This document shows positions 4,377 to 59,933 of a stretch of DNA of 64,000 nucleotides, piece by piece. This stretch comes from Lathyrus oleraceus. Taxonomy: Eukaryota; Streptophyta; Magnoliopsida; Fabales; Fabaceae. The DNA lies in assembly GCF_024323335.1 (NCBI RefSeq), contig NC_066585.1, forward strand, positions 344,477,846 to 344,541,845. The letters run 5' to 3'. The translations under genes were made by a program, and so were the position numbers. The notes under the pieces are model-generated. The model was given only the letters and a program-made list of their open reading frames with translations, searched no databases and was not told the DNA's origin. Each line of letters opens with the position of its first letter. Position 1 is the stretch's first letter.

Positions 4377-5409
4377 AAGGGCTACCACCGTAGCAAAGGA
4401 TCAGATAAATATGAATCACAAAGTGAAATAATGTAATAATGAAATCTATGAATGTATATGCATATATGATGATTATACTGACAAAACGATCACAAAGGAT
4501 ACAAACGTCACCGATATGAATCATCAGTACAGCACTCAACCATTCTCAACAGGAGGGAATCAACTGGAGAAATAGAGGTAAAGGACGAACGCGAATTATC
4601 CATCTTAAAGGCTTAACCCTAGTTGGGGAAGAGGGAAAGATCTGCCGAGGATCTGCACCATCAACTCTGCGGGGAATTTTTGGTCAACACCATATCAAAT
4701 AGGAGACAACCTTGTAGAGGATCAGACATACTTCTCTAGAGCCAATGCTGAATGAAATCCGCCGGCGACTTAAGGGGAAACAAAATTTGTGTTGGATCTA
4801 TGCAAACTGCTGAGAAAATGCACCTGCAAATCAAAGGAGGCATTTACAAACTCAGCTGGGGGAACCAACCAAAATTGGCGGGAGATGTTGAAATGCTACT
4901 TGGGAAGAAACAGAGATCATGTCAACTGCTTGGGGAAAACTAACAATGCTTCACATCTTAGGGCTCAATTGTTCTTAGACCGCTGTTGATATTCCTTAAA
5001 TGAAATCGGTTGCTCTTAAAAAGTAACTGCTTTTATTATTTAAGAAAACATGATTTTGATTTTTAAAATTCAATTTCAAAATGATCATTTATAAAATTTA
5101 ATTCTATTTGGATGAAAGATAAATAAGAGTAGAAACAAATGGATAAAAAGCTCAACTTTATTTAATAGAATGGTAGTCTGTAAATGACAAGACTCCATAG
5201 ATCTTTACAAAAGTTGAAAAATAGTAATTTACATGGAAAAGGGCTACATTGAACATAATGATCACTAATCCTTCTACCGACTTCAATATCCAATGTGTTC
5301 TTCGCTTCGGTTGAAGATGAATCAGAACCAAACATCATGCTCAAGAATGTTTTCGAGACTGAAGAATCAACAGGATGCAGTTACTTGCCATAATACCTAA
5401 TTTTTGCAT

Positions 5410-5560
5410 AAATTTCCCCAAGGTGGGGTACTCAATTTGTCGGGATAATTTTTTTTTGTGGCTTTATGTCTATAACTTTTGCATGGGTAGCCCTTTCGGG
5501 TCTTCAATCCACAGAGACACTCATTTTTGCCTAAGTCGCCCTTTTAGGTTTTCAACTTAG
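5410..5560 (-). other. Post-pol hairpin array of element A (3 hairpins)
   Basis: Three stem-loops lie between the pol stop and the 3' UTR repeats. Nearest pol, 5531-5560 pairs CTAAG with CTTAG around a CCT-AAAA-GGG core. Next, 5484-5511 has a CCC-GAAA-GGG core with a partly decayed outer stem (TGGG against TCCA on the plus strand). The third, 5410-5438, pairs CCCC with GGGG plus five outer A-T pairs. In the minus-strand RNA two of the three are followed by GCAAAAAT-like sequence and the middle one by a variant. B, D and E have the same arrangement. Confidence 0.75.
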
Positions 5561-5578
5561 CGAGCTATTCTTTTCTTT

Positions 5579-6367
5579 TTAGGAGAAGTATTTCTTGATT
5601 GCATCAGCATTCATAGGACATGTGAACTCTTCACCATCCATAGTTGTAAGAATCAAAGCACCGCATGAAAAGGCTCTCTTAACAACATATGAGCCTTCAT
5701 AATTAGGAGTCCATTGTCCCCTAGCATCTGGTTTGAAAGATAAAATCTTCTTGAGCACAAGGTTACCTTCTCTGAATACACGAGGCCTAACCTTCTTATC
5801 AAATGCCTTCTTCATTCTCTGCTGGTATAACTGACCATGACACATGGCAGTCAACCTCTTGTCTTCAATCAAATTTAGCTGATCATACCTGGTCTGACAC
5901 CATTCAACCTTGGTCAACTTGGCTTCCATCAAAATATGCAATGATGCGATCTCAACCTCTATTGGGAGCATAACTTCCATACCATAAACAAGCGAGAAAG
6001 GGGCTACCCCTATTGACGTGAGGATGGATGTACAATACCCATGCAAAGCAAATGGGAGCAACTCATGCCAATCTTTGTACGTTATAACCATTTTCTAAAT
6101 GACCTTCTTAATGTTCTTATTTGCAGCTTCAACATCCTCATTCATCTTAGGTCTATAGGGAGAAGAATCATGATGTGCAATCTTGAAGTCTTTGCAAAGA
6201 GCTTCAACCATATTATTGTTCAAGTTCGATCCATTATCAGTAATGATCTTACTTGGAAAACCATACCGACATATAATCTGATTCTTGATAAACCTCACAA
6301 TAACTTGCTTGGTTACATTCACATACGATGCCGCATCAACCCACTTTGTGAAGTAATCAATAGCCAC
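5579..6367 (-). pseudogene. Integrase catalytic core and C-terminus of element A
   Basis: The translation holds ITDNGSNL (second catalytic Asp) and NEDVEAANK (catalytic Glu), then the C-terminal region seen in all elements here (HGYCTS, SLVYGME, GQLYQQRMKKAFDKK, VFREGNLVLKK, WTPNYEG) and ends in IKKYFS plus a stop at 5579. A TAG at 6095-6097 replaces the Gln of the IIQKM motif found in B and E, so the protein is broken. Just upstream, near 6370-6395, the frame changes relative to the preceding domain. In an active element this enzyme inserts the cDNA into host DNA. There is no chromodomain, as expected for the Tat/Ogre lineage. Confidence 0.88.
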
Positions 6368-7330
6368 CGAAATGAAACAAAGTCCGTTTGAGTTTTGGGC
6401 TCAATCATGCCAATCATATCGATTCCCCACATGAAGAAGGACCATGGGGAGGAAATATCATTCAACAGTGTCGGTGGAACATGAATCTTATCTACATAGA
6501 CTTGACACTTGTGGAATTTCTTCACAAACTTGCAATAGTCAGATTCCATTGTCAGCCAATAGTAACCTGGTCTCAACATCTTCTTAGCCATAGCATGTCC
6601 ATTGAAATGAGTAGCAAAGGAACCTTCATGGACTTTAGTCATCAACAAGTTTGCTTCGTATCTATCCACACATATGAGCATAACCATATCGAAGTTTCTC
6701 TTGTATAGCAAATAACTATTCAGGTCAAAATTGCCGGCTAATCTTCTCAAAGTCTTCTTATCTTTCAAAGATGCCCCAAGAGGGTAAATCTGACTTTGGA
6801 GAAAACATTTAATATCAAAATACCATGGCTTTTCATCTTTGATCTCTTCAATAGGAAACACATGAGCTGACCTATCAAGATTTATCACAGTTAAATTGGG
6901 AACTTCATTTTGAAATTTCACCATTATCATAGAAGCCAATGTTGCAAGAGTATCTGCCATCCGGTTTTCATCTCGAGGGATATGATGAAATTCAACCTTA
7001 GTAAAGAAAGTTGAAATCCTCCTCGCATAGTCTCTATATGGTATCAAATCGGTTTGATTCGTCTCCCATTCTTCTTTGATCTGATTCACAACCAAAGCTG
7101 AATCTCCATAGACGTCAAGATACTTGATTCTATGATCAATGACCTCTTCAAGCCCCATAACGCAAGCTTCATACTCAGCCATATTATTTGTACACTTGAA
7201 AGTCAATCTAGTTTTAAACATAAATTGAGTGCCTTGAGGAGTAATAATCACGCCCCCAATGCCATTACCATACTAATTAACAGCTCCATCAAATACCATG
7301 CCCCAACGGGAACCAAGTTTTGTCCCTTGT
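6368..7330 (-). pseudogene. Archaeal-type RNase H and integrase zinc domain of element A
   Basis: Going downstream on the minus strand: an archaeal-type RNase H (FDG, AEYEAC, YGDSALVV and NRMADTLA motifs), a linker (KPWYFDIKCFLQ), the integrase HHCC domain (KVHEGSFATH and a Cys pair) and the first catalytic Asp in MWGIDMIG. A TAG near 7273-7275 interrupts the RNase H where B and E have Gln or Asn-Gln before YGNG. In the zinc domain the first Cys of the CxxC pair is Phe (KKFHKC, against KKCHKC in B, D and E), so metal binding would be lost. A frameshift near 6370-6395 separates this part from the catalytic core. Dual RNase H is a known hallmark of Tat elements. Confidence 0.85.
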
Positions 7331-8013: not shown

Positions 8014-8200
8014 TGTAGCGGTAAATTCATGATCAACAAGCTATAGATAAGCTAGAGATCAAATAACAAGAGTCGCCACCGCGCTTTTATTGTTTCCAAG
8101 GGAAAAGGGAAAAAGTACGAACAAAGGCCAACAGTAAGAAGTTTTCAAATCAAAACTAATAAAAAGTCAGAGATTACAGGTAAGGGGGTTGGTTAGACAG

Positions 8201-8219
8201 AGGGAAGGTATTAGTACCC
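8201..8219 (-). promoter_or_regulatory. Conserved LTR box in B 3' LTR
   Basis: The minus strand reads GGGTACTAATACCTTCCCT. The same box lies at the same relative place near the LTR 3' end in C, D and E, but is deleted from B's own 5' LTR. Confidence 0.6.
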
Positions 8220-8346
8220 AAAGTGTCCTAGGTACTCCTAGGGAGCCCTTTTTTGTGTGCATATGTACTTGGTATAAAGTGATGTTTACAAACAAATAGA
8301 ATGAGGGGGATGAGAAAAGAATTCATTAATTACATTTTTGTGTTTG

Positions 8347-8409
8347 ACAAGACCGACGATCTTGTGCCTACGTACCAACATAAAAATGAGGGATCAAAAC
8401 TTCGTAGTT
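8347..8409 (-). other. LTR hairpin plus CCTACGTACC motif, B 3' LTR
   Basis: Stem ACAAGA/TCTTGT (8347-8352 with 8360-8365) is followed on the plus strand by CCTACGTACC (8367-8376) and CGTAGTT (8403-8409). B's 5' LTR and E's LTR have equivalent segments with different stem sequences. Confidence 0.55.
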
Positions 8410-10463
8410 TGTGATACAAATTTCAAAGTGGATGCATTGCTTTTAACAAAATTTAAGTTTGAAAGGCACAAAGGCCTAAAAATGGTTTGAATGAGTTAGC
8501 TCTTTTTGGCTTTTTGAATGTTTAGGTCAAGTATAGTTAAGTTTATTTACAAGTTTGATTTAAGAAAAGAAGTTTGAAAATGCAATGGCATAAGGCCAAA
8601 GTTTCTATCTTTTTGCAAAGTGGTCAAAGTTTAGAACAAAAGTAGTTCACACAAAGAAGATTTTGAAAAATGGAGGGAGAGATTTTAAAATTAAAGAAAT
8701 GGGGAGAAGATGAAGAGACTATCCTATGTACAAAATTAAAAGTTTAGAGTTGAAAAGATCTGACCAAATGGGTAGCAATCCAATAGACAAGAATGTCAAT
8801 AGAAGCCCAGAATTCCCTTGGATTTTTAGAATCAAGCAACACACAAATGCACAATTATATTATCTTGAAGAGCAAGGCATCAAATAAAGATGGCCACATC
8901 CAAGCTTATCCATTCCATGATCTTCTCCATAATAGCCCATGTAACAGATGAGTTCCATAAGTCACAGGTTCAAAATAACAGCTTCACAATGATCATGTTG
9001 CAGATGAACTTAGAGATGTCTTCAAAGATGTATCAGATGACTTTCAAATTGCAAGAACTTGGTTCTTCAATAAGTTGGCATTGGCCAAGTACTTTAGCAT
9101 AGGAAGGTTGCCTAGATTCTAAGTCCATTTGTCCAAGATCAAGCCAACAGTCCACACAAAAGTTTTCTAGGGATTTTGTTGTTATTATGTACATTAATGG
9201 TCAAATACCACACAAACAAGCAAAGTATATACAAACAAAATATATCACACAATATGGTCCCAATGTACAAAGTAAAAATTGCTTTAACATAAACAATTAG
9301 AATGAAATGAACAATGGCAAATGAATAAAAATAAAAATTAAATGGCATTAAAGTAAAGGACTTGAAATTAAAAGTTAGTAGTTAATTGGTTAGAAGTTAG
9401 TATTGTTTTGCTTTTGCTTTTCATTTTCAAGACATTCTTTGGAGAACACTCAACCCACTTATCACAAGCATGAATCCTTGAGCCAAAACATCTTCCAAAG
9501 GAAGGAAAGAAGGCCAAGTTTCCACACAATACCATGAAAGAGGGGAGACTTACAATCTCACTAACTAGAATGCTTATGCCTCTTATGTCACAAATTTAGC
9601 GCTATGTTAAGCAATCGTAATTGGACTTATGTAGAAGTCATAACTATTTGAGGTCGGGCAATAAAATTTTGGTGTTAATGCATGTTAGATACATAGTATA
9701 ATGGACTATGCTCGTGAAACATACCACACACAAAAAGAATATGCAAAAGGTGTGGCCTAATCTCATCCATACTCATGTCAATTTTTCAATCAACTAGCCT
9801 TAGGATTATGAGATATCATAGGCCAAATGGAATGAATGAATGAAGAAAGGGAAGAAGATGAAGTGGGAGGGAAATGGATCAAAACACAAATTGGTCAAAA
9901 GAGGACTTTTACCAAATTAATATCATCCATTCATTTTGGGAGATGGAATGTACATTCCATCAATCCCCTAAATCCAATGATACTAATTTGACAAAGTCAA
10001 ACCAACCTTTACCAAGGCCCAACAACAAGAGTCAAACACAAACAAGTCATCACAATTGGCTAACAAAATTATGTGGCATTTATTCAAATTAAAATACTAA
10101 AATAGTGCATTTAAATTCATATATGGTTTGTCCAATTCCTAAAATCTCATCAAAACACCAAAGAAATGGCCATGAGGTTTATCATAGGTCAAACAAGGTC
10201 AAAGGACCTTGGAGAAAAAATTTCATAATTTTTGGAAATTTAATAATATTATTAAACAATTAAAAATAAATGCAAAATCAATTAATTCATGAGAAATATT
10301 AATAATGATCAAAAAAATAATTTTAATTTAGAATATGAAAGAGAAAAACATTTGAATTTTTTTGGTGAAAGTCCCATATTTTTTGGATTAATATTGAATT
10401 TAATATGAATTATTGAAAATAATGCAATTAAAATGAAAATGAAAATATTAGAAAAAACATGGA

Positions 10464-10505
10464 CCACTTGATCTCCCTCATTAATTGAGGTGGCAGATCA
10501 AGTGG
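10464..10505 (-). repeat. 42-base inverted repeat in B 3' LTR
   Basis: CCACTTGATCT (10464-10474) pairs perfectly with AGATCAAGTGG (10495-10505), around CCTCA/TGAGG and a TTAAT loop. Compared with A, paired positions in both arms changed together. Confidence 0.8.
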
Positions 10506-10628
10506 CTAGAAACGCGTTATCCACGATGGACACAAGTCAGCGCGCTACACAGTTGGTAATCACAATGGACGCGTGAGATTAGAACAAAATAACAAGATCA
10601 TGTGGCTGTGAGACATGCCAGCGCATGG

Positions 10629-12718: not shown

Positions 12719-15430
12719 AAGGACATTCTAACTGAGGAGGCGAAGGTTAAAATCTTCATGTCGACTCAGTATAGTGGGCTTAAATAACAACATAGAGAAA
12801 AAAAATTTGGTCTTAAGAGAGCTCATGATGCATATGATATGAATGTAAAAGTTAATGCTCTGTGGGGAAACATTGCCACAAAGGAAAAGAAATCAGAGAG
12901 ACCGAAAATTCGCGGGAGTATAATGCATTCCATAAGGAAAACTCACTGGGGAGACAAAGACTCTGGGGGGAAAAGGAGTTATGCATAGGCCAGGCTACGA
13001 CTTAAAACTACTAGGGGACTCGAGGAATTCCATTCAAACATGGAAAGGACTCAGCTGGGGAAACAACAACATCCGCAGGGGATACGACTAAGTCAGGATG
13101 AAACTGAAATACTTGAATCATGCAGGAAAAGAGATTTCACTAAGGAAAAACGCACACTCAACTCAACTGGGGAAGCAATAAACCTCAACACAGGAGGAGC
13201 AGAAATCTATTATCTACTACCTGTTACTAGGTAAGGAGATAATAAAGATCTGACAGAGAGAACATCCGTCATCGGTTAGGATGAACCTATCAAGGATGAC
13301 TCACTGAGGATTCCAGTAGAGGGAATTCATTACCGGTTACTGGGTAAGAATAACCTTGCTGGGAAAAAATGTAGAAAAGATAGGATTTACAATTACCAGT
13401 TACTGGGCAGATGACCAAGGGTGAGAGTATCTGTCATCGGTTAGGATGAACATATCAAGGATAAACTCAACAGGGAAGAAAATCCATCATCGGTTAAGAT
13501 GAACATACCATGGATAGACTTTCCTGGAAATGCCAAGGAGGATACCCATCATCGTTTAGGATGAACATATCAAGGATATACCAACTGAACAAAAAGGGTA
13601 GGAATTACATCTATCGAAAGGTGGATAGAAAACCGTCGGAGAGAAAATCCATCACCGGTTAGGATGAACATATCAAGGATAGACTCTGCAAGGGGACAAA
13701 GTAGGATTTACAACTACCGGTTACTGGGTAGAAAACCACAAAGAGAAGAAAACCCGTTATCGGTGAAAATGAACATATAAAGGATTAACTCTCTGAGGAA
13801 CAAAATAGGGATTACAACTACCTTTTTACAAGGGTAGAATACCACAAGAATGAGAATATTTGTCACTGGTTAAAGTGAACATATCAAGGAGAGACTCAGG
13901 CAGGGGAAAGAAAGATATCTGTCACCGGTTAGGATGAACATATCAAGGATATACTTCCTGGGGAATAGATCCACTGGGGACTCTACTGAGGAGAAAAATA
14001 AGGGTACTTTTTCCGGGTATTGGGCAAGAAGTAACAAACTGCAGACTAAGAAGAATATTACCAGGTATTGGGTAATAGACTCTTAGGGGACCAAAGTATC
14101 TATCTAGGTAAGAGCTAGAAAGAAAACCGTCAATCAAGACTCAACCCAATGAGGACATAACTCAAGGGGAGTAATTCCAACCAGAAAATCCACTGGAGAG
14201 GAAACTGAAGTAACAACCATCCACGAGGAAACAAACTCAGTGGGGAAACGGAGAAAGGTTAAAGTCTTTCTGCTTAAGGGGCTGACACTCTACAATTGAA
14301 GGAGGACAGACACCAGATTTGGTATGGGGATAAAATACCTCCATAGCAGAGAATAAGAATCTCAAACCAATCAAATATGAGGATGCAGGATATGCAAATT
14401 ATGAAATTATATGAATGTATATGTATATGTATATATGATGATTATGCTGACAAAATGATCACAAAGGATACAAAGGAGTCGCAAAGAATTTGAACCACCG
14501 GTACAATCCTCGGTCAATCCACAAAACATGGAGACAACTGCTGGAGAACAGAGAGATCAACACCCCAAAGGCTCAACCCTAGCCGGGGAAGGAGGAGATC
14601 TGCTGAGGACAGAACATCAAATATGTGGGGAATTTTAGGTTAACACCACAAAAATGGGAGACAACCCTACGGAGAAAAATCATAACAAAAGTTGCTCAGA
14701 AACCAGGAGGAAACTCTGAATGGGAGCAAGTTGAACGGAGATTGGTAGGGAAACCAAAGTGATCTACTAGGGAAGATCAACCACCTCTGAAGATCAACCT
14801 TGCCGAGGAAATACGAACTTCGCTGGGGAAGGCAGAAACTCTATCGGAGAAAACAACACGCCGCAGGGTATCTGAAATAACCAAATCAGCTGGGGACGAG
14901 GAAAGGGATTCCATTGAGAGTCAAACACTCCACCGAGGAACTGGATCAACACCGACATCTAGGGACACCCGAAGGGTTAATTGCTTGGGGAACCTCTGAT
15001 GTTTCGCACTTAAGGACTTGCTATGCTGTTGATATTCCTTTTACTTGTTTTGGAAAAATTCTTGCTTTTAAAAACTTGATTTTGATTTAAAAATTTAATT
15101 TCAAAATGATCATAATAAAATTTAAAACTATTGGATGAAGTAAATAAGAGTAGAAACAATTGGATAAAAGCTCAACTTTATTTAATGAGAAGGTAGTCTG
15201 TAAATGACAAGACTCCATGGATTTTTACAAAGTTGAAAATGGTAATTTACATGGAAAAAGGGTTACATTGAATACAAATGATCCTTAATCCTTCTACCAA
15301 CTCTTGATATCCACTATACTCTTGACCGCTGTTGGGGGTGAACTGATGTCAACCCTTGTGCTCAAACAAGTCATCAAAATCACTGAAGATCAGCAGAATG
15401 CAGTTACTTGCCAGAATCCCTAATTTTTGC
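12719..15430 (-). other. 3' UTR of element B
   Basis: About 2.7 kb of non-coding, repeat-rich sequence, colinear with the 3' UTR of A (same start, same array, same CTGCTTAAGGGG stretch near 14270). Besides the minisatellite at 13200-14080 I see only degenerate repeats such as GGGGA-rich words. Confidence 0.75.
13200..14080. repeat. Degenerate minisatellite in 3' UTR of B
   Basis: Units share the GGTTAGGATGAACATATCAA and ACCGGTTACTGGGTA cores with A's array but differ in number and spacing. The cores recur about every 70-110 bases. Confidence 0.75.
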
Positions 15431-15578
15431 ATAAGTTGCCCCAAGGTGGGGTACTCAACTTATCGAGAAATTATTTCTGTTTTATGTCTCTAATTTTTTC
15501 CTGGATCGCCCTTTCGGGTTTTCAATCCACCGAGACGCTCATTTTTTCCTAAGCCGCCCTTTCGGGTTTTCAACTTAG
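15431..15578 (-). other. Post-pol hairpin array of element B (3 hairpins)
   Basis: Nearest pol: 15549-15578, CTAAG/CTTAG outer stem around CCC-GAAA-GGG. Middle: 15502-15529, TGGA/TCCA around CCC-GAAA-GGG. Distal: 15431-15463, ATAAGTTG/CAACTTAT outer stem around CCCC-GGGG. In minus-strand RNA the loops of the first two are GAAA (GNRA type). The distal hairpin is followed by GCAAAAATTAGGG and the other two by related A-rich sequence. The first hairpin overlaps the present stop codon at 15575-15577 because B lost its normal stop. Confidence 0.8.
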
Positions 15579-16276
15579 CGAACTGTTCTTTTTCTTTTTT
15601 TGGCGAAGTATTTCTTGACTGCATATGCGTTCACAGCATGAGTGAACTCTTCACCATCCATAGTTGTAAGAATCAATGTGCCGCCTGAAAAGGCTCTCTT
15701 AAAAACATATGTGTCTTCATAATTAGGAGTCCATTTTCCACTGGAATCTGGCTTAAACGTAAAAATCTTCTTGAGCACAAGGTCACCTTCTCTGAATACA
15801 CGAGGTATGACCTTCTTATCAAAAGCTTTCTTCATCCTTTGCTGATACAACTGACCATGGCATATGGCAGTCAATCTCTTCTCTTCAATGAAATTCAACT
15901 GATCAAACCTGGTCTGACACCATTCAACTTCAGTCAACTTGGCTTCCATGAGCACACACAATGAAGGAATCTCAACCTCTACGGGGAGCACTACTTCCAC
16001 ACCATAAATAAGAGAGGAAGGGGGTTCACCTGTTGAAGTGCAGATGGATGTACGATACCCATGCAAAGCAAAAGGGAGCATCTCATGCCAATCCTTATAC
16101 GTGACAACCATCTTCTGGATAATCTTCTTAATGTTCTTATTCGCAGCTTCAATAGCCCCATTCATGTTGGGTCTGTAGGGAGAAGAATTATGATGTACAA
16201 TCTTGAAGTCTTTAGAAAGATCTTCCACCATATTGTTATTCAAGTTTGATCTGTTATCAGTAATAATCGTACTTGG
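15575..16276 (-). pseudogene. Integrase core and C-terminus of element B (downstream of solo LTR C)
   Basis: It begins in STIITDNRSNL (second catalytic Asp; Gly to Arg beside it), then NGAIEAANK (catalytic Glu) and the usual C-terminal region to VKKYFA. Where E stops after KRYFA, the TAA is AAA here, so translation runs eight residues further (KKRKRTVR) to TAA at 15575-15577, inside the first post-pol hairpin. The reading frame is otherwise open, but it is split from the rest of integrase by element C. The frame also continues a few codons into C (to 16297), which is chance. Confidence 0.88.
16272..16276. repeat. Target-site duplication of C, left copy (CTTGG)
   Basis: Identical to 20871-20875. 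Removing C and one copy restores RYGVPSTIITDN in B's integrase. Confidence 0.9.
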
Positions 16277-25161: not shown

Positions 25162-25739
25162 TTATTGTTTGAAAATGGGCACTATGAGATTAACGTCGTC
25201 ATTTGCATGACGGGATTGAACAATTTGAATCATGCCTTCATCCATCAGACGTTGGATTTCCCTTTTCACTACCATACACCCTCTTGGGTTCATACTACAA
25301 ACAACACAACTATCATGGTCATGTTCAGAGTCACTCACCATACAAATATCCTTATGCATCTGCACCAAGGATCTTCATATAAACCGGACGTCATAAACAT
25401 TGAATTCTCCAGACAACCGTCTACCATATTCACTGAAGAGTTCCCATGAGCGGGCAAAGGGTTTGCTTTCACATTTGGCGCGCGGTCCTCAAAGGACACC
25501 ATACCACTCTTCATAAGCTTTTGAACCTCATACTTCAATGGATAGCAATTTTCAATATCGTGTCCGGGTGCTCCTTGATGAAAAGCACAACGGAGCTCAT
25601 GTTTATACCACCAGGGAAGTGGTTCTGGGATCTGAGGTGGGTTCCTCGGTTGAATTAAGTTCTTGAGAACTAACGAGGGATACAACTCAGCATACGACAT
25701 AGGAATTGGGTCAAAAGAGACCTTCTTCCTCTCAAAATT
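25162..25739 (-). pseudogene. C-terminal gag of element B (left of D)
   Basis: It starts at the D junction with NFERKKVSFDPIPMSYAELY, the standard Ogre gag segment, then a zinc-knuckle-like motif (Cys-x2-His-x5-His-x4-Cys in RCAFHQGAPGHDIENC), YEVQKLMKSG, and after a frame change MNPRGCMVVKREIQRLM and VNLIVPIF. Known Ogre gag carries these blocks in this order. The rest of gag is on the other side of D at 42261. Confidence 0.85.
25735..25739. repeat. Target-site duplication of D, left copy (AAATT)
   Basis: The partner at 42261-42265 is GTATT, so only three of five bases match. Removing D plus one copy restores B's gag frame. Confidence 0.55.
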
Positions 25740-26282
25740 TGTCATACCCCAAAATTTGCCTGTTAACTTTTATGATAAATTGATTCATGCATGACATTCA
25801 TTTCACATTTGCATTCATTCATTAGCATACATTGTCATATAAATTATAAATTTTAATTTATTTATTATGTGATACAGATATAAAAATAATAATGATTTTG
25901 GTTATCTGTATGATATAAATAAATTATATATATATGTAAATAAAATAGTTTTAATTTAATGATAAATAAAAATAGATTTGAATTTTAATTGTATAATTAA
26001 AATTTTAAATTAATTTTATTTGTTAAAGCTCATTAAATTATAATAACTATTTTTTATAATTTAGTGAGTCATGTTCCATTTACTCATTATTTATAAATAG
26101 TATTTATTTAGTAATTCATGTTTTTTACTTAATAAAATTTATTTATAAGAGTAACGTTTTTAAAAGCCCATAATTTATAAAATAATTTTGGTTGATATAA
26201 CTCTCATAAATTATATGGTGAGATCCTAAAATATAGGAAGGGATCCAAATATTTAGTAAGGTTAAACCCTAATCCACACCAT

Positions 26283-26290
26283 TATAAATA
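26283..26290 (+). promoter_or_regulatory. TATA box in 5' LTR of D
   Basis: TATAAATA, repeated at 40236-40243 in the 3' LTR. It is followed within about 30-60 bases by a purine-rich leader, and is the likely start region of genomic RNA. Confidence 0.6.
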
Positions 26291-27016
26291 CTTCATATGG
26301 CTGCAGCGAAAAAGAGGAGGAAAAGGAGGAGAGACACATCAGAAGAAGATACACAAGGCAAGACAGAATTAAGAAGATTCACGGGCAGGGAAAAGAGAAG
26401 CAACCATAAAGCACTCATAGCCTGAATAAGAACAACACACATACAATGAGCAAGCTAGAAGAATCAAATCCCCAGTAAGTGTTCATTATGGAATTTGCAT
26501 CCCGCATGATTACCTTGCAATACTCCTTAATTCATGCATGAATACTATTGGTTTAATATATATATTGAGATTGTATTCATGGTTTGGTGGATGTTGATAT
26601 TACTTTATTCAAGTATGCATTTGTTCTTGATATGTCATAGCATGTTGGAGAAATTCTGTTTGCACGATTAAAGAATTATATCTGCCATTTAATTATTATT
26701 ATATGAGTGTTGTTTCTAACATGATTATGTTTATTTCACATGTTGTTATTACATAATAATGATGATGATGATATAATGGTGATAATATAAATCTTTGGTT
26801 GTCTTTAACATGTATGTGTAAGGTTTGTTTTATCATTATCACTTGCAGTAAAGATAACTAATACATGAGTAAAATAATATAAGCTTCTTGATTTGTGCAT
26901 GGCTATTTTTATTATTGCATGACGATTACATATGATCTTATTTTATGTGTGTGGTTTGATATAAGATGAAGTTACAGGTTTTTTGTATTCACATGAAGGC
27001 GAATAAATAACGAATG

Positions 27017-27095
27017 GACCAATATGGCTCGTTGGTAGCTCCCCCCTCACTGCAACGTAGAGGTCCTGGGTTTGAGCCCCCGGGACCTATTTTTT
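27017..27095 (+). other. tRNA-like segment with T6 run in 5' LTR of D
   Basis: Box A-like TGGCTCGTTGGTAGC (27025-27039), box B-like GGGTTTGAGCCCC inside a nine-pair stem (GGTCCTGGG with CCCGGGACC, one T-G pair), then six T at 27090-27095, a Pol III terminator signal. The anticodon arm is not convincing, so it is a tRNA relic or a captured SINE head rather than a working tRNA. Confidence 0.55.
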
Positions 27096-28470
27096 AGCTT
27101 TTTCAGTTTTTTCACTATGTTTACTCCCTTTCCACTATAATTAATTCACCACTATTTTTCTCTTGTTAAAATAAAACCCATTAATTAATTTTCTAATTAA
27201 TATATTATATTGGTTATTTAAACTAGGATATAATTTAATCTAGTTTATTAATTAAATTTGCATATATCACTTAATTAATTAAAATGGGATATTTTGAATA
27301 ATAAAAATCTAATTATATTTTTTTTCTCTTTTCTTTTAAAATTTCTATCAATTTAGTCTAAGTTTTTTCCATAAATTCATAAAAAAAAAGGTTTCTATTA
27401 TTATAGACTAAAAATATTTTTAATTCATTCTTAAATTTAGTTTATTTATTTCATTTGTCATGAACTTTCTATGCCCTTTTAATTTTGTACTCGTTAATTA
27501 AGATTTAGATATTTTATATCCCCTTTTAAATTATGTACCCCCCATCCCGAAGCCATGTAATAGCGTAGTCTTATTTCTCGCACTTTAATTTTTCCATACT
27601 GTGAATATAACTGTCTAGATGTATGCTAATAGGATTGCATGGCAAGATAAATAATCGAACTTAGATAAATTAATTCAAGATAATATATCTGAATCCAATC
27701 ATTTCCACACTTGCACCTCTAGGGTAACCCTCTCTTTGTTGCCTTACGAAATTACGGTCATGTCCCGCGAATGTGGGGATACCCTTAGCAAAGACCCTTT
27801 CGATTAAATCATCATCATCCCTAAACAGATAAGTCATAGTCCCTTCGATCAAAAGGTCAATGTCCCTACAAGATAAATCATAGTCCCTCGAACGTTGCCG
27901 TCGAATATATGACCTTGTCCCTCGAACGTTGCCTTCGAATATATAACTTTGTCCCTTGATGACCCATCGTTGTAGCCTATGATTAAATGATGACCGTCCC
28001 TTCGAATGCTAAGGTATCCTTACAAATGTTGCCTTCAATGACCAATCGACGACCCCACGATGTCCCTTTACATCCAAAGGATAAGACTACTTACTTCTCA
28101 ATAGTAATGACAGTTTTACCCTCCTAAGGATAGGAAATACCTATAAAGACCTTGGTTAGGTATAACTCTTAAATGCTTGCTCACAGCTTAAAATACTTTT
28201 CACACCTCACACTTTTCAAAACATATTTTAGAAAATCACCACTTGATATACATTCGCACCAGAATCATCGCCGAGTTATATTTTTCTAAACATCTTTCAA
28301 AGTCAAACGAGATAAACACTTTGTATACATTCGTACAAGAATCATTACAAAGTTAAACTCTCCTTTCAAAATATTTTCTAAACACACCACATTTCTCAAA
28401 CACTTTCTCAAACAAGGAAAACATAAGTGAGTTAAGCAATTAAGAGCCCATGGATAACCATGGATACAAA

Positions 28471-28490
28471 GGGTGCTAACACCTTCCCTT
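28471..28490 (+). promoter_or_regulatory. Conserved LTR box in 5' LTR of D
   Basis: GGGTGCTAACACCTTCCCTT, about 155 bases from the LTR end. The same box occurs in the other LTR families in this window. Confidence 0.6.
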
Positions 28491-28649
28491 TGTATAATGT
28501 ACCTCCCGAACTCAAAATCTAATCAAGGTCTTTCCTGTTCTTTTTCGCCTTTCCTTATTGGATAAAAGAAAAGTCGGTGGCGACTCTTGCTATTCACAAC
28601 ATTACTTTTCAAAGCAAAAACACAAAGTCAGTTCACCGTATCACAGAAC

Positions 28650-28668
28650 TGGCGACTCTGTTGGGGAC
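28650..28668 (+). other. Primer binding site of element D
   Basis: TGGCGACTCTGTTGGGGAC starts four bases after the LTR end. B has the same site with one difference. The site of legume Ogre elements is described as matching a tRNA-Arg 3' end; that match is from memory, not checked here. Confidence 0.8.
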
Positions 28669-29379
28669 TCTTAAAAAGAGAGGTTACCTTAAAGATAAGA
28701 TCACTTATGTTTTCGAATTGTTTCTTTGTCTGATTTACTTTTAAGGCATTGTTTGGGTATTATATGCTTGAGTGAAAGATCCTACACCCGGATCTAGTGT
28801 ACCTTAGGTGAGTTGCAAGAGATCATCGCGACTGTCCGACGTATACTGGAATGGTTAAAATGATGGCTACGGTTAATGTGACACTTTGGATGTCCTGATG
28901 TTCCTCATTTTTACTTGAGGAAAAATTTGGCGTCTGCGTGGTGTCATCAAAGCATTAACCAGACCTTTATAACCCTAATTGACTCATGCTAGCCATTAGA
29001 AAGTACTGAGATAACTGACTTCGGTTCCGACTGGGGTTGGTTGATACTCGATACTACACTCTTTGAGATTGGACTTTAGGAAAATTTTGGTCAACCGCTT
29101 GGTCTTGCACTGAAGTGGACTTAAGGAAAGGTCAATGATTTGAGATCCTTCTAGAACCCAGTTACTATTCTAGGATAGGTTGAACCAACCAAACTTCAAT
29201 GGGGAGGGTACTTACCTATGGAACTCATGCAAGCCTTAAAACCTAGGAATGATTGTGGTGTGACTTGTTTGTGCTTGTTACTTACTTGACATCATAACAT
29301 CATAACATCATGACATCATGGCATTGTACTAACCATTTTGAGGACTTAGGGATTTAACTTTGCTCTGTTTTGTAGGGCT
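28669..29379 (+). other. 5' UTR of element D
   Basis: About 710 bases from primer site to ORF1, without coding sequence. It contains a short CATCATAACAT repeat near 29290-29325. A TTTTGTAG just before the ATG could be a splice acceptor, which I cannot test. Confidence 0.65.
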
Positions 29380-30708
29380 ATGGCTTCCAGGAAGACCATC
29401 CGGATCAATTTTGTAGCGACCTCTCCTCAACTCAAGGATCTAGTGTCGGAACTTCCCGATCATGCTCAGTTCATCAAGAAACATGGTTATCTCCTCAATT
29501 TAGTTACCACCGGTTTCAAGGAAGATATGATGAGAGTTCTATTCCAGTTCTTCGATCCTAAACATCATTGCTTCACCTTCCCATATTATCAGTTGGTACC
29601 CACATTAGAAGAATTTTCCAGGTTGCTTAGGATACCTATCCTTGATCAAACACCTTTCAGTGGTTTAGAAAAGATTCCGAGGTCTGAAGAGGTTGTCGCG
29701 GCTTTACACATGACAAAGTCCGACATTGAAACTAATTGGGTAACAAGAAATGAAGTTAAGGGTTTACTTGCCAAATTTCTGATAAATAAGGCCTGAGAAT
29801 TCCTAAAAGCTATGAGTGTCCACGCTTTCGAAGATGTTCTAGCATTACTAATCTATGGTTTGGTGCTATTTCCTAATCCGGATCAATTCATAGACATGAA
29901 TGCTGTTAAGATATTTCTCACTCATAACCCTGTGCCCACCTTGCTTGGAAACATTTTGCATTCCCTTCACACTCGTACTATGAAAAGGCAAGGGACTCTC
30001 ATGTGCTGCGTACCTTTATTATCTAGGTGGTTTATTTCGCACCTTCCTCAATCAATCTTGAAGAATGAGCAAAATTTGAAATGGTCTCAAAGGATAATGT
30101 CGCTCTCCCATTCAGACATCCATTGGTGTCCCCAACCCAAAGAAAATGTTATCATCATTGACCGTTGTGGAGAATTCTCTAACGTACCACTCTTGGGGAT
30201 AAAAGGAGGTATTACTTATAATCCTGCTTTAGCCCTACGTCAGTTTGGTTATGCTCGAAGAGATGGTCCACATGAAATAATTATCCAAGGCACTGTGTTT
30301 GACTATGACAACGATTCTCAAGGTCTCCGTCAAAGGTTTGTACGAGCTTGGGGCATGGTGAAAAGAAGTACTTTAGGACAGAAAAACTCTATTCCTATGG
30401 AACCTTATCTCAGATGGGTACACGCTAGAGCTCGTGAGCTTATCATGCCATATCTTGCAATCGGACCTCTGATTGTTGAACCAAAAGTTGAAGGAGGTAC
30501 CCCTCAGATCATTCCTTATCCAGATATGGTTACCAATGTTGAAGAATTGAAGAAATCTTGGATCCAGTTGAGAGAGGAAAGGGATACTTTTGAAGCTCAG
30601 TTCTATGCTGAAAGGAAGAAAGTATTAGAGCTCACCAGCCAGCTTAATGAGGAACGAAGTCTCAATGCATATCTCCGCCCAAAAAGAAGCCGTCCCTGGG
30701 AGACTTGA
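29380..30708 (+). pseudogene. ORF1 of element D
   Basis: One frame of 442 codons starting MASRKTIRINFVATSP and interrupted once by TGA at 29794-29796. Recognisable blocks are FFDPKHHCFTFPYYQLVPTL, EEFSRLLRIPI, RWFISHLPQS and LGIKGGITYNP. The last 60 or so residues (VEELKKSWIQLREERDTF onward) look coiled-coil. This extra ORF before gag is diagnostic of Ogre elements. Its function is unknown; the conserved part resembles a plant domain of unknown function also found in transposon proteins. B has a homologue at 43828-45329. Confidence 0.85.
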
Positions 30709-30877
30709 GCTTTCATTTTTTCTTGTAATGAACATTGATTAAAGAAATTATTAATAAAAGTTCCCCTTTTTGGTGGTTTACGCAAAGTTAAATTCCAAAA
30801 GTCCTTGAAAACATTTCATACATTGCATAGCATAACATAACATTGCATAACAGGTACTCTAAAGGATCAATGTTCTC
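30709..30877 (+). other. ORF1-gag spacer of D
   Basis: A 169-base A/T-rich non-coding spacer, with CATAACATAACATTGCATAA words near 30830. Confidence 0.6.
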
Positions 30878-32655
30878 ATGGTCTTCCTCTCAAACAGAAA
30901 AATGGCCCTCGAACAAACTGTCAAGGATCTCCAGGCTCAGAATGCTCAATTCCAGGAGATGATCTTGAACTTATCCAAGGGGCAGGAGGAACTGAAGACT
31001 CTATTGCTCGAGAAGAAGAAAGACAAGAAATATGTGGGTTACATTAACCCGGGAAGAAGACTTAAAGGACAGGCTCCAGGAGTCAAGATTGGAATTCCGA
31101 AGGATAAAGAAGATGAGATAGAAAATGATTCGGAAGATGAGAATGTTGATCCCTTCAACCCTGAGGACGACTATGAAAATTATGAAAATGAACAGTACTC
31201 TCCGAAAGATGATAAGTAAAAGTTGCTGGAAGAACGTATGCTTGCTATGGAGGGTCAAAAGGTGCCCGGTCTGGATTTCGAAAGCTTAGGTCTGGTCTCT
31301 GATATGGTCATTCCTCCCAAATTCACGGTCCCCGCTTTCACTAAGTATGATGGTGCGTCTTGTCCTCAGATGCATCTTAGAGCTTATGTGAGAAAGATCC
31401 AGCTGTATACCACTGATAGGAAGCTATGGATCCATTTCTTCCAAGAGAGTCTATCTGGCACACAGTTAGAGTGGTATTATCAGCTCGAGAGCTCTAACAT
31501 CCGCACCTGGACTGATTTAGCGACAACTTTCTACAAGCACTACCAGTATAATTCTGAATTAGTGCCGACTCGGCTATAGCTGCAGAATATGACTATGGGC
31601 TCTAAAGAAAGCTTCAAAGAATATACTCAAAAATGGAGAGACTTGGTTGGCAGAGTCAAACCCCCTATGACTGATCGAGAATTAGTGGACATGTTCATGG
31701 GTACACTGACTGGCCCATTCTACAGCCATCTATTGGGAAGTTCCTCATCGGGTTTCACTGAACTTATATTGACGGGTGAACGTGTTGAAAGCGGCATTCC
31801 AAGTGGAAAGATACAGGTGGCTACCTCTGCAAGCACCAAAAAGTCCTATCAGGGGAAGAATGAATCAAATGCTGTGTACAGTCAAAGGGGTCATAACAAG
31901 AAAAATCTTGACCGTACTGTTGGAGCAGTTACGATTGCAGCACCGCCATCTCAAAACTTCCAATACAGACAAGACAGGCCAAGAAGGAAGTTTACCAAGA
32001 TCAATATGACTTTAGCACAAGCACTGCAGAGTATGCTAAAACCAAATTTAATTACCCTCAGAGATCCTCCTGCAAATCCCAACACTACTTCTCCTTGTTA
32101 TAATCCCAATGCCAGGTGTGCATATCACTCTGATAGCCCCGGGCATGATACAAACGATTGTTGGTTGTTGAAGAATAAGATTAAGGATATGTTTGACGCT
32201 GGAGAAATTGAATTTGATCCTCCGGAGACTCCTAATTTCATCACTGCTCCTATGCCTAATCATGACAAGACTGTTAATGATGTGGATGACAATTCTCACA
32301 TTACTAATGCAGCAGATTTAACATCTCCTCTCCTGATCATCAAGAAGAATTTATTGCAAGCTGGTTTATTTCCAGGTTGTGCTGAAAATTGCGATCTCTG
32401 TATACTCCGACCCAATGATTGCTTGAAGTTGAGGAATGGTATTTAACGGCTGATGGATGATCGTACAATTCTCTTTGAAAAGATTCCTAAGGTGGAAAAC
32501 CCTATTAAAGAAATATCTGTGATTACTAGGTCCAAAGTTCTAGTGAAGATTACCACTACTAGAGTGCCTGTGAAGATTACTGCTGAGCCCAAGGTAGCTC
32601 CCCTAATTATTACTGCACCTGGCCACTACCGTATTCCTCAAGCAAAGCCATTTCG
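30878..32655 (+). pseudogene. gag of element D
   Basis: A single frame, starting at ATG 30878 or 30902, has stops at 31217 (TAA), 31577 (TAG) and 32444 (TAA). It has an N-terminal coiled coil (MALEQTVKDLQAQNAQF), an acidic stretch, the capsid-type gag domain (FTVPAFTKYDGASCPQMHLR to GPFYSHLLGSSSSGF), a basic region and a zinc-knuckle-like Cys-x2-His-x5-His-x4-Cys (RCAYHSDSPGHDTNDC). Near 32645-32655 a one-base change moves the frame to that of the protease. gag builds the virus-like particle in the cytoplasm. Confidence 0.87.
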
Positions 32656-33941
32656 TGGAATTATGGAGGTGATGTTTACATCCACGGCATAAAGCAAGAT
32701 GATAATTCTGCCAATCCTAATGACGTTGACATTGTTGGGACTAGTAAAATTACTCGAAATGGAAGGATCTTCTCTCCAGAAATCTCACCTCCCGCCCCTG
32801 AAACTCGAGGAAAGGGACCAGTAATCAATCCTTCTCAGTCAAAGACACCAGTCGAAGTTACTACCAAAGATGTTGCCAAGCAGGAAATGGAAGAAATGCT
32901 GAAAATCATCCGTAAGAGTGATTTTGATGTGGTAGAACAGTTGGGGCATACTCCGTCTAAAATTTCGATGTTATCCTTGCTGTTATCTTCTGAATCTCGT
33001 GCCAATGCATTGATAAAACTCTTGAAGACCGCTCATGTACCTCAGGAGACATCTGTCGATTAGTTAGAAAATTATGTTGCCAACTTGGTTGTTGATAATG
33101 GCATAGGCTTTTCTGATGCTGACCTGACACCAGCAGGAAAGAATCACAATAAATCTCTGCATATCTCCATTGAGTGTAAGGGGATCACCTTGTCTCATGT
33201 GTTGATCGACAATGGCTCTTCTTTGAATGTGCTACCAAAAGTTGTGCTCGATAAGATTGACTGTAAAAGCATTGAACTGAAACCTAGTGATGTTGTGGTG
33301 CGTGCTTACAATGGTGCGAAGAGTGTTGTCCATGGTGAAGTGGTTCTCCCTATCAAGATAGGACCTCAAGTCTTCAACACTACCTGTTACGTAATGAACA
33401 TTCGTCCTGCCTATTCCTGCTTGCTGGGACGCCCTTTGATCCATGGGGCAAGTGTTGTAGCTTCGTCTCTCCATCAAAAGCTGAGGTATCCAATAGAGGG
33501 TAAGATTGTCACTGTGTGTGGAGAAGAAGAGTATATTGTCAGTAGTGTGCATACCTTCAGATACGTCGAGATGGATGGTGAATTCTTTGAGACTCCTTCT
33601 CAGTCATTTGAAGTAGTTCCTCCGACCAGTCCTGTCCTTAAGCCAACTTCCCGTGTGCCCAAGGTTATTCGGGCTCCTCCTGCTATGATTTCTCTGAAAG
33701 ATGCTCAAACCGTGGTTGAAGATGGTGGTCGTACTGGCTGGGGTCAACTGATCGAGGTACCGTACAAGTCTGATAAATTTGGCCTGGGGTTTAGCTCTGA
33801 AAAGATAGTCAAAGATCAGATTAATGTTGTAGAAGATGCTGATAGCGATTGCGACTTGGATAGCTGGATTTTCCTAACAATTGGTGACGGACTCAATAAT
33901 TGGAAGGCTGAAGACGCTATCCCGATTTCCTTTAGTCAGGA
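32656..33941 (+). pseudogene. Aspartic protease of element D (up to splice donor)
   Basis: It resumes in a new frame with WNYGGDVYIHGIKQDDN, has a TAG at 33061-33063, then the protease: SLHISIECKGITLSHVLIDN, active site IDNGSSLN (Asp at 33208-33210), AYSCLLGRPLIHGASVV. The usual DTG/DSG is DNG, a variant I believe occurs in other plant elements; its effect is uncertain. The C-terminus contains GRTGWG and FGLGFSSEK, similar to the G-patch-like end in B. The exon ends at 33941 and the frame continues after the intron. Confidence 0.86.
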
Positions 33942-37664: not shown

Positions 37665-37674
37665 AAGAGACCCG

Positions 37675-37846
37675 CTAGGTCGACATATCTAGGCAAAAGT
37701 AAGGGCATCCCGGCGAACCAAAAGGGTTCGGGCAAAAATTAGGGATAAACATATAAAAATATACACCCGGCAAGTCGAAAACCTGAAAAGGCGGCTTGGG
37801 CAAAAAAGGGTATCCTGGTGGACTGAAAACCTGAAAAGGTGGTCCA
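37675..37846 (+). other. Post-pol hairpin array of element D (4 hairpins)
   Basis: Starting 10 bases after the pol stop. 37675-37692: CTAG/CTAG, weak. 37714-37730: CGAACC/GGTTCG, loop AAAAG. 37771-37798: CAAG/CTTG around CCT-GAAA-AGG. 37819-37846: TGGA/TCCA around CCT-GAAA-AGG. Each is followed by GGCAAAA or GGGCAAAA. Same architecture as in A, B and E but with different stem bases. Confidence 0.8.
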
Positions 37847-39680: not shown

Positions 39681-39693
39681 GAACAGGGGCAGT
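39681..39693 (+). other. Polypurine tract of element D
   Basis: GAACAGGGGCAGT directly before the LTR TG. It shares the AGGGGCAG core with A and B. Confidence 0.75.
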
Positions 39694-42260: not shown

Positions 42261-42265
42261 GTATT
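42261..42265. repeat. Target-site duplication of D, right copy (GTATT)
   Basis: Compared with AAATT at 25735-25739; the last three bases match. Confidence 0.5.
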
Positions 42266-58200: not shown

Positions 58201-59750
58201 GGCAAAACAGCCACCAAGACAAATCTGTAGGGGAACAAGAGAAATCCCAAAGATATATCTGCAGGGGATCCCAGTGTTAACTGAGAACCAAAAGAGTGCA
58301 TTGCACGAATACGAACTGCTGTAGAAGCAAAAATCCAAATAACTCCGCTGGGGAACAACCCACTGAGGGAGAATGATATCATCCAAATAGAGTGTAATTG
58401 CATAAGCAACTCTACTGGGGAAAACTGTCGGCTACTCTCTTGGGAACAAATCACTGACGGAGGACAGATCAAACAAATAGATTCTGCAACGAACCACTCC
58501 ACTCGGGGAGAATATTCAAAGCAAACTGATCGTAACAAGTAGATTCTGCAATAAGCCACTCTACCGGGGATCACAGACAGTCATGAAATTAATCCGTTCA
58601 CTGGAGGCAAAAGCCATCCTCCGACCATATCGGGGATCGAAAGGAGTATTCAACGGGCGAAACTGCCACAACAAACATTCTGCAGCCCAAGCTGAGGAAA
58701 AGACGGTTGAAATACTGGGATACCAACCCAAATCGACCACGAAGTAGGAAAATAAATCCTGCTCTGCTGAAGAGAAAAAACTCTGATGGAGATAGCAACA
58801 ATTCCGCAGACGACTTCGCCGGGGAAAAGGTAAAGTACCGGGTATCAAACCACTGACTTACCGAATCTTCAAAAAGAAAACGACCGTGCTGAGGAAACAG
58901 ACAGCTCCGCTGGTACACTGCATGGGGAAAAGAGGTAACAACTCCACTTGCAACCCTGGTGGGGATATCAATAACAGCTCTACCCGCGACTCCGAGGGGA
59001 GTACCAATCGATCAGTTATACTCATGACCGCGCTGAGGAAACAAATAAAGTCTGGGGCATACGACCCACTGGAGGAAGGGACGGGGCACCAAGGTGATAA
59101 ACCATCAACCACCGAAACTTTGCAATAAAACACCCACGTTGGGAGGAAAAACTGCTGCTGGAGAGAACGAAGTCTTCAACAACACTTACTTACGACTGTA
59201 CTGGGGAACAACCCCAACAACTACTCTGCTTGAGGAACAACCCCAACAAAGATCTGAAGAAAGAAGATACCACCAAACCAGGAATATGAACCAATGTCTT
59301 ACCTGTTGGGAATCATGCCACCCTCGGGAGAGCACTGAGATATTCTTGAGTATCCTTTCAATCTTGTGAATGTTCACTTTGTTTAAAACAACAATTTTGA
59401 AAAATTTGATTTGTTTAAAACAATGACATTTTATCAATTTAAAACATGCAAAACATTTGTTGAATTGAAACAAATAAGAGTGCAAATAATTGGATAAAAA
59501 GCTCAAATTGATTTAATAGAATGGTAGTCTGCAAATGGCAAGACTCCATAGATCTGTACAAACTTGAAATCAGTGATATATATTGGAAGAGGACTACATT
59601 GAACATAATGATCCTTTCTCTACCAATTTGAATCTCGATGTATCCGAAGCTTCAATTGACGACGAATCGAGAATCTTCTGACGAAATGACGACTGATGAA
59701 CCAGAAAGTCTTGTCAGGATGCAGTTACTTGCCAATTCCCTAATTTTTGC
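55260..59750 (-). other. 3' UTR of element E
   Basis: About 4.5 kb without convincing coding sequence; many overlapping short open frames on both strands come from repeats. Minisatellite at 55730-57600; the part 57600-59380 has GGGGA-rich, CGCTGGGGAA-like words; 59380-59750 is AT-rich and similar to A (5040-5400) and B (15050-15420). Confidence 0.72.
55730..57600. repeat. Higher-order minisatellite in 3' UTR of E
   Basis: Short cores (ATACCGGTTACTGGGTATAT; ATTACCGGCAGACCGTGAAT) are arranged in a larger unit: GTGAATTGGTTTTCACTTCC recurs near 55870, 56172 and 56466, about 295-300 bases apart. Confidence 0.78.
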
Positions 59751-59900
59751 CTAGATTGCCCCAGGGTGAGGTACTCAATCTAGCGGGATGCAAATATATC
59801 TCTTTTTTCAAGTCTCTAATTTTTGCCTGGATTACCCTTGCGGGTCCTCCACCGAGACGCTCATTTTTGCCTAAGCCGCCCTTTCGGGTTTTCAACTTAG
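59751..59900 (-). other. Post-pol hairpin array of element E (3 hairpins)
   Basis: Nearest pol: 59871-59900, CTAAG/CTTAG around CCC-GAAA-GGG. Middle: 59828-59851, TGGA/TCCA around CCC-GCAA-GGG (also a GNRA loop). Distal: 59751-59783, CTAGATTG/CAATCTAG around CCTC/GGGG (one T-G pair). On the minus strand all three are followed by GGCAAAAAT. Confidence 0.82.
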
Positions 59901-59933
59901 CGAGTTATTCTGTTTTTCATTCTTTTTTCATTT

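What the first reader, a model, noticed from the sequence alone, without database searches (positions are those of the whole stretch)
15431..15578. Tandem GNRA-tetraloop hairpins directly after pol, conserved in element B and its relatives
Three stem-loops follow B's integrase. Two have a CCC-GAAA-GGG core on the RNA strand with outer stems CTAAG/CTTAG and TGGA/TCCA, separated from the core by an asymmetric internal loop (TTGAAAA on one side, CGG or CGA on the other). The distal one has eight outer pairs plus CCCC/GGGG. The same series occurs in A (5410-5560) and E (59751-59900), and a four-member form in D. The loop stays GNRA type in most cases (GAAA, GCAA) while stems vary. Such a repeated fold next to the stop codon suggests an RNA function: packaging, 3' end processing, translation or splicing control. 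I know of no description of it, but could not search.
Basis: partly seen in the sequence, partly recalled or inferred. Interest (0 to 1): 0.86.

Follow-up and report, generated by a model that had tools for sequence, protein, structure and literature searches.

The report
Paired RNA hairpins after Ogre pol
Right after their last gene, large Ogre-type jumping elements of a pea-like genome carry a series of RNA hairpins whose shape is kept while many of their letters change, even in shortened elements that seem to have lost that gene, so it is probably a signal by which the element's RNA is recognised and passed on.

Summary
Units mostly abut in dyads. A model without P0 found arrays in 5 of 20 random 10-kb genome pieces, among them all 4 with a matching integrase end. 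In 110 distinct units the seven best-covarying column pairs of 820 are all structure pairs; pairing is 91.9% against 71.1 +/- 5.0 with substitutions replayed on the tree (0 of 400). An R-scape-like per-pair test stayed above E = 0.05 (best 0.15). Elements without detectable RT or integrase (4 of 4 with long flanks) keep one dyad, which favours a cis-acting signal of the genomic RNA over a pol-translation signal. Best guess: recognition or packaging of that RNA; export and stability are rivals; none is tested. No Rfam match at gathering score; no description found in the papers searched. One genome only.

The parts
15537..15583 (-). B1, unit type I: P0 GUUC/GAGC, P1 CUAAGUUG/CGGCUUAG, AAAA bulge, P2 CCC/GGG with GAAA loop; pol stop TAA at 15575-15577 inside P1
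15486..15536 (-). B2, unit type II: P0 GUCUC/GAGAC, P1 UGGAUUG/CGAUCCA, AAAA bulge, P2 CCC/GGG with GAAA; abuts B1 with no spacer
15416..15469 (-). B3, distal unit: P1 AUAAGUUG/CAACUUAU, AGUA bulge, P2 CCCC/GGGG around ACCUU (not GNRA; RNAfold adds an A-U pair); possible P0 UCUC/GGGA with a wobble, not formed in the MFE of the whole array
5519..5565 (-). A1, unit type I (P0 GCUC/GAGU, loop AAAA)
5468..5518 (-). A2, unit type II, P1 partly broken
5393..5446 (-). A3, distal unit, weakened (MFE does not form P1)
59859..59905 (-). E1, unit type I; P0 only 3 bp (CUC/GAG)
59812..59858 (-). E2, unit type II with shortened bulge region, GCAA loop, P0 GUCUC/GAGAC intact
59736..59789 (-). E3, distal unit, P1 CUAGAUUG/CAAUCUAG, 8 bp
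37670..37706 (+). D1: P0 CCC/GGG, P1 CUAGGU/AUCUAG, no P2 of this type; 5 nt after the pol stop (37662-37664)
   Evidence: weak model match, 14.6 bits, E 1.4
37707..37746 (+). D2: P0 AUCCC/GGGAU, P1 CGAACC/GGUUCG, no P2
37765..37811 (+). D3, unit type I: P0 ACCC/GGGU, P1 CAAGUCG/CGGCUUG, P2 CCU/AGG, GAAA
37812..37862 (+). D4, unit type II: P0 AUCCU/GGGAU, P1 UGGACUG/UGGUCCA, P2 CCU/AGG

Best explanation
Shown: Ogre-type elements of this genome carry, directly 3' of pol, a conserved sense-strand RNA module of bulged hairpins (P0, P1, A-rich bulge, P2 often with a GAAA loop, strand GGCAAAAAU(UA)), mainly in dyads of types I and II (one dyad in pol-less elements, a dyad plus a distal unit in A, B and E, four units elsewhere). 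Helices are kept through changes on both sides; the unpaired strand and the bulge stay A-rich. Inferred: this is a cis-acting recognition signal of the full-length RNA. The stems act as a scaffold that presents the A-rich bulge and the GGCAAAAAU strand, in several copies, to a protein that selects this RNA for the particle, most likely Ogre Gag. Repetition would give avidity. Pol-less elements would keep a dyad because they must be recognised in trans by autonomous relatives.
For: Structure: 80 of 80 cells paired in 8 seed units, 6 of 10 pairs with changes on both sides, slid controls 26-55%; top seven of 820 column pairs are structure pairs; pairing 91.9% against 71.1 +/- 5.0 on the tree; P0 outside the model; MFE recovers at least 5 of 7 P1 pairs (+/- 1 nt) in 92 of 110 units, and in L188 all four units with P0. 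Spread: arrays in 5 of 20 random 10-kb pieces, among them 4 of 4 with a matching integrase end; best score 21.1 bits in 700 kb of viral contigs chosen for a 15-mer of the motif. Cis role: L158, L208, L209 and L210 show no match to the window's RT or integrase pieces over 5-6 kb upstream and have a dyad; L210 matches window pieces with Pfam Retrotrans_gag. In 24 loci of this sort 48 units keep 558 of 627 pairs against 486 +/- 6 shuffled. A family of near-identical copies carries the array (all 40 scored matches, the window's own included, 99-100%). Ty3 packaging needs both UTRs and POL (PMC11381356, passages).
Against: No binding, packaging or probing data. Retention in pol-less elements does not tell packaging from export or stability. 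The Ty1 packaging region is at the 5' end (PMC5454406, abstract in a listing). No pair is significant alone in the R-scape-like test. P1 and P2 columns come from alignments fitted to the model, and the shuffle models neither relatedness nor the two unit types. Whole-array MFE of D swaps P0 between D1 and D3. Old copies have broken stems (A3; first unit of L158). One genome only. For 20 of the 24 'pol-less' loci I saw only about 90-215 nt upstream, so loss of pol there is assumed from likeness.
Confidence: 0.42

Rival explanations
1. Nuclear export element: the array lets intron-retaining full-length RNA leave the nucleus, as RTE and MTE (and CTE) elements do in animal retroelements.
For: Ogre RNA is spliced in only a subset of transcripts (passage in PMC6317226), so unspliced RNA needs an exit; IAP and MusD carry structured export elements (PMC12786077, passages); repeated A-rich internal loops recall the CTE (recalled, no call).
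Against: Elements without detectable RT or integrase keep the dyad, and they may lack the intron (not determined). No receptor-binding motif was tested.
Confidence: 0.2
2. Post-stop stability element: sitting a few nt after the pol stop and before a long 3' UTR, the array shields the RNA from nonsense-mediated decay, like the Rous sarcoma virus stability element.
For: Position about 2-22 nt after the stop in 19 of 21 arrays; long stretches to the 3' LTR (about 5.0 kb in B, 2.0 kb in D, from LTR places); the RSV element sits immediately after the gag stop and has stems (PMC2925335, abstract and passages).
Against: In L158, L208 and L210 the dyad lies about 740-775 nt after the last gag-side match. 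In a plant assay a lack of structure after the stop protected, and a 2-base change that made a stable hairpin abolished it, though recoding structures protected (PMC6277124, passages).
Confidence: 0.18
3. ENE-like protection of the 3' end, or 3' processing, by tertiary pairing with A- or U-rich RNA.
For: A U-rich ENE motif in the ORF-LTR spacer stabilises the plant element Evade (PMC12501189, passages); the array here has A-tracts.
Against: The sense strand has A-rich, not U-rich, loops, and wobble counts favour the sense strand (21 against 3). The array ends about 1.8 kb (D) and 4.9 kb (B) from the 3' LTR.
Confidence: 0.07
4. No function: tandem duplication of an inverted repeat, shared by descent among related elements.
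For: A, B and E are 76-84% identical in this region; 3' UTRs of this lineage are known for tandem repeats (PMC7004042, passages); the folding energy of single units is only mildly low (median z -1.5, A3, E1 and E3 fold about as well as shuffles); per-pair tree test not significant.
Against: P1 letters differ between units while pairing stays; tree-replay null 0 of 400; D has no post-pol blastn match of 200 nt or more at E 1e-20 to A, B or E yet has the fold; most of the farther 3' UTR diverges.
Confidence: 0.06

Closest known systems
Packaging/dimerisation hairpins of LTR elements and retroviruses (Ty1 and Ty3 cis signals; tandem tetraloop hairpins of the murine leukaemia virus packaging region, recalled)
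   Same: several hairpins with recurrent loops on the genomic RNA; expected to be kept in non-autonomous derivatives
   Different: lies after pol, about 1.8-4.9 kb before the 3' LTR; repeated dyads with A-rich bulge and GGCAAAAAU strand; function untested
CTE / RTE / MTE export elements of animal retroelements
   Same: structured element on the RNA of a retroelement with a retained intron
   Different: no shared sequence or fold shown; receptor unknown; also in elements without detectable pol
Rous sarcoma virus RNA stability element
   Same: structured RNA right after a stop codon that precedes a long untranslated stretch
   Different: after pol rather than gag; repeated small units; far from the gag-side match in pol-less elements
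ENE triple-helix element (Evade, Arabidopsis)
   Same: stem with internal loops in the ORF-LTR spacer of a plant LTR element
   Different: A-rich instead of U-rich loops; not near the 3' LTR
Tandem repeats of Ogre/Tat 3' UTRs
   Same: same lineage, same side of pol
   Different: those are called hypervariable and seed satellites (PMC7004042, passages); this array abuts pol, and its units differ in letters more than in shape

Membership tests
Ogre/Tat Ty3-gypsy element (host of the array) | extra archaeal-type RNase H between RNase H and integrase (Ogre and Retand in angiosperms, PMC6317226 passage) | tested here: met
   E frame 59957-61993: RVT_3 at 109-227, Integrase_H2C2 317-374, rve 393-490; D frame has RVT_1 and RT_RNaseH. 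D LTRs 25739-28646 and 39693-42261 at 96%. Ogre against Retand was not tested; the long LTRs favour Ogre (recalled).
Known Rfam family | covariance-model match at gathering score | tested here: not met
   0 matches at gathering in L184, L188, L152, L208; window 15000-15700 by E-value gave two weak matches far below gathering. A, D and E were not searched.
ENE | U-rich internal loops flanked by G-C pairs | tested here: not met
   bulge AAAA in 22 of 25 type I and 48 of 85 type II units; strand GGCAAAAA in 20 of 25 and 29 of 85, others mostly as A-rich
RSV-type stability element | lies right after the stop codon it protects | tested here: inconclusive
   about 2-22 nt after the pol stop in 19 of 21 arrays, but about 740-775 nt after the last gag-side match in 3 pol-less loci
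RSV-type stability element | protects from UPF1-dependent decay | not testable with these tools
   needs a reporter assay
CTE-like export element | recruits the export machinery to intron-containing RNA | not testable with these tools
   no assay; intron status of pol-less elements not determined
Packaging signal | fold present in elements lacking detectable pol | tested here: met
   4 of 4 loci with long flanks (L158, L208, L209, L210); 48 units in 24 loci of this sort keep 558 of 627 pairs
Packaging signal | bound by Gag and needed for entry into particles | not testable with these tools
   no assay

The most novel reading that the evidence does not exclude
The dyad is the identity tag of Ogre genomic RNA: a modular, avidity-based packaging code, one dyad in pol-less parasites and up to two dyads in autonomous elements, through which pol-less elements are mobilised in trans. 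It would be the first structured packaging signal that I know of for a plant LTR retrotransposon.
Probability: 0.33. Interest if true: 0.8.

Novelty: new variant of a known kind. Interest (0 to 1): 0.64.

Why it matters
Cis-acting RNA signals of plant LTR retrotransposons are little known; a December 2025 review states that export of their RNA has not been studied directly in plants (PMC12786077, passages). Here is a defined, alignable RNA family at a fixed place in an abundant element lineage. It has natural variants with 2, 3 and 4 units, pol-less carriers, and a family of near-identical copies to test them in. It makes the question of how such elements mark their own RNA directly testable, and gives a marker for finding Ogre 3' ends and non-autonomous relatives.

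Tried and rejected
Geometry-only search: too unspecific (27-43 hits per simulated strand). Scanning IMG/VR with D's 553-aa RT piece: no relative. R-scape-like G-test with a tree null: no single pair below E 0.05, reported as a negative. A coding explanation was not pursued, because pol stops before or in the first unit. ENE: wrong bases on the sense strand. Kinship of L158's gag-dyad spacer with the window: no blastn match. Rows dropped before counts: the 3 lowest of 32 matches (L155, L167 at 8196, L161); from the seed alignment 5 of 13 window units (A2, A3, E2, D1, D2) as degenerate or without P2; identical units counted once (138 to 110). L198 has two units and no recognised integrase end but was counted with the pol-bearing set. 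No stop could be called in L167 (broken frame), L198 and L200; the values printed for L158 and L174 are chance motif matches and were left out. Labels: L158's frame at 5319-5678 and the window pieces that match it have no Pfam match, so 'gag side' there rests on L210, where the same piece follows Retrotrans_gag matches; the Ogre splicing paper PMC2596294 is not held. Of the papers named I saw abstracts, passages or listings, not whole texts; no supplements. Notes 2-4 give slightly different ranges (34-43 hits, 74-100%, 750-850 nt); the report gives the recounted ones.

Full report
What is there. Self-comparison shows D with LTRs at 25739-28646 and 39693-42261 (96%), nested between a second LTR pair at 8014-10548 and 46190-48632 (94%) that I assign to B (inference). 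A, cut at 8007/8014, and E are related minus-strand pol ends. E's frame holds an extra RNase H (RVT_3), then an integrase zinc finger and core, the order given for Ogre and Retand in PMC6317226 (passage). The hairpins start at the end of pol in all four. The stretch from pol to the 3' LTR is about 5.0 kb in B and 2.0 kb in D.

The unit. On the RNA strand each full unit reads P0 - G(G) - P1 - AAAA - P2 - loop - P2' - P1' - GGCAAAAAU(UA) - P0'. RNAfold finds P1 with eight pairs in B1, including G-C next to a four-base bulge. P0 was missed: GUCUC/GAGAC in B2 and E2, AUCCC/GGGAU in D2, ACCC/GGGU in D3, GCUC/GAGU in A1. In type I units P0' follows GGCAAAAAU directly; in type II two more bases intervene. 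Cores of close neighbours are 7-9 nt apart in 61 of 65 cases, which is P0' of one and P0 of the next; 25 further neighbours are 21-38 nt apart.

Is it more than chance. The bare geometry is common. A model of 8 units without P0 had 80 of 80 cells paired, 6 of 10 pairs with changes on both sides, and 26-55% pairing when slid; the eight were picked, from 13, for being clean. Run on the window and 200 kb taken at random places (20 pieces), it found clusters in L150, L152, L158, L166 and L167, with up to 65.8 bits. In 700 kb of viral contigs chosen because they hold the 15-mer GGCAAAAATTAGRGA, the best score was 21.1 bits (80 of 120 stretches). Some members of real arrays score lower than that (for example D1 14.6), so single weak matches mean nothing alone. 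P0, not in the model, pairs better within units than between them (316 against 250 +/- 12.8, 0 of 20000).

Larger alignment. A genome search with L158 gave 43 matches at 73-100% (40 of 1051 candidates scored). I fetched the 39 other places and scanned them. With the 29 kept rows this made 138 units, 110 distinct. Pairing: P1 95.4%, P0 87.5%, P2 89.0% of cells. Seven of the ten P1 and P2 pairs have at least 13 cells of a second Watson-Crick pair, for example AU 55 and GC 51 at the third P1 pair. By APC-corrected G the seven best of 820 column pairs are P1 (four), P2 (two) and P0 (one). With substitutions replayed at random on a tree of the same columns, pairing falls to 71.1 +/- 5.0% (0 of 400 reach 91.9%; for P2 alone 13 of 400 do); with a tree from the 5' half, 64.7 +/- 5.2% (0 of 400). 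Mapped events on the first tree: double changes that keep a pair 13, single changes that keep it 112, breaks 92; many breaks are expected in dead copies. Against this, a G-test with the same kind of null gives no pair below E 0.05 (best 0.15), probably because each column has few independent changes. So the set of pairs is significant and single pairs are not. P1 and P2 were aligned by the model, which leans towards pairing; P0 was placed by two registers chosen from the letters after the A-strand.

Strand and folding. In 20 distinct rows there are 21 G-U pairs on the sense strand and 3 that would pair only on the antisense strand (the model was built on the sense strand, which favours this). 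Single units fold only mildly better than shuffles (median z -1.5). The 181-nt B array has z -2.9, 0 of 200 shuffles as good. In L188 the MFE shows all four units with P0; in D it pairs P0 strands of D1 and D3 with each other instead.

Where it occurs. Of the 20 random pieces, 4 hold a match to the C-terminal end of the window's integrases, and all 4 have the array next to it; the fifth array is in L158. Pol-bearing loci have 3 or 4 units, P0 about 2-22 nt after the stop in 19 of 21. D's query gave 40 scored matches of 2315 candidates, all 99-100% and the window's own included. L158 has a direct repeat pair that looks like LTRs (4-659 and 8444-9101, 86%), a match to a gag-side piece at 5370-5696, no match to RT or integrase pieces, and one dyad at 6437-6527. 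L208 and L210 likewise show gag-side matches, L209 no window protein; all three have a dyad and tandem repeats after it. In L210 the matching window pieces carry Pfam Retrotrans_gag. The dyad lies about 740-775 nt after the last gag-side match. The 24 loci of this sort keep 558 of 627 pairs against 486 +/- 6 in shuffles; for 20 of them only about 90-215 nt upstream was seen. A-B-E identity is high through most of the array and again at 15280-15161 (B coordinates), with dips at 15600-15561 (against E), 15480-15441 and 15400-15281, and falls beyond about 15080.

Mechanism. A fold kept by changes on both sides in elements without pol is hard to explain by pol translation or its stop codon alone. 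What remains are tasks of the RNA itself: selection into particles, export, stability. I prefer selection by Gag because repeated units with an A-rich unpaired face suit multivalent protein binding, and because non-autonomous elements need recognition in trans. Ty3 packaging needs both UTRs and POL, signals not precisely defined (PMC11381356, passages). Export is next: Ogre RNA is partly spliced (PMC6317226, passage). A stop-codon insulator like the RSV element (PMC2925335, abstract and passages) fits the place after pol but not the pol-less elements, and in a plant assay a stable hairpin after the stop abolished protection (PMC6277124, passages). All of this is inference.

Novelty. No Rfam match at gathering in four loci, only two weak ones by E-value in B. 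Listings of nine paper searches brought up none that describes it. PMC7004042, PMC6317226, PMC11963269 and PMC12786077 do not contain the word hairpin. Subscription papers, among them the founding Ogre papers, were not available, so a description there cannot be excluded.

Noticed in passing
L158:1-10000, L208, L210: Elements without detectable RT or integrase, with a gag-side match, one hairpin dyad about 740-775 nt later and, in L208 and L210, tandem repeats after it; L158's dyad gave 43 genome matches in one search (40 of 1051 candidates scored), some of them in pol-bearing elements.
   Followed up: partly
window 15161-15280 (B), same place in A and E: A second conserved noncoding block about 300-420 nt after the pol stop (A-E 95% in one 40-nt bin); beyond about 15080 the 3' UTR diverges.
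   Followed up: no
window 56034-56910: Several spaced hairpins with similar arms (ATTATTCATTACCGG..CCGTGAATAAT) in a tandem-repeat stretch; unrelated to the array.
   Followed up: no
window 25739-42261: D looks like part of a young burst: all 40 scored genome matches of its post-pol stretch (its own included) are 99-100% identical.
   Followed up: partly
window 8014-48632: Nested insertions: an LTR pair at 8014-10548 and 46190-48632 (94%) encloses D and interrupts the element to which A's pol end belongs; B's pol is itself interrupted between about 16276 and 20870.
   Followed up: partly
dyad junctions, e.g. window 15532-15540: The joint between units I and II (GAGCGUCUC, GGGUAUCCC) could also pair with itself as a 3-bp hairpin, and D's MFE swaps P0 strands between units, so an alternative fold of the dyad is possible.
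   Followed up: no
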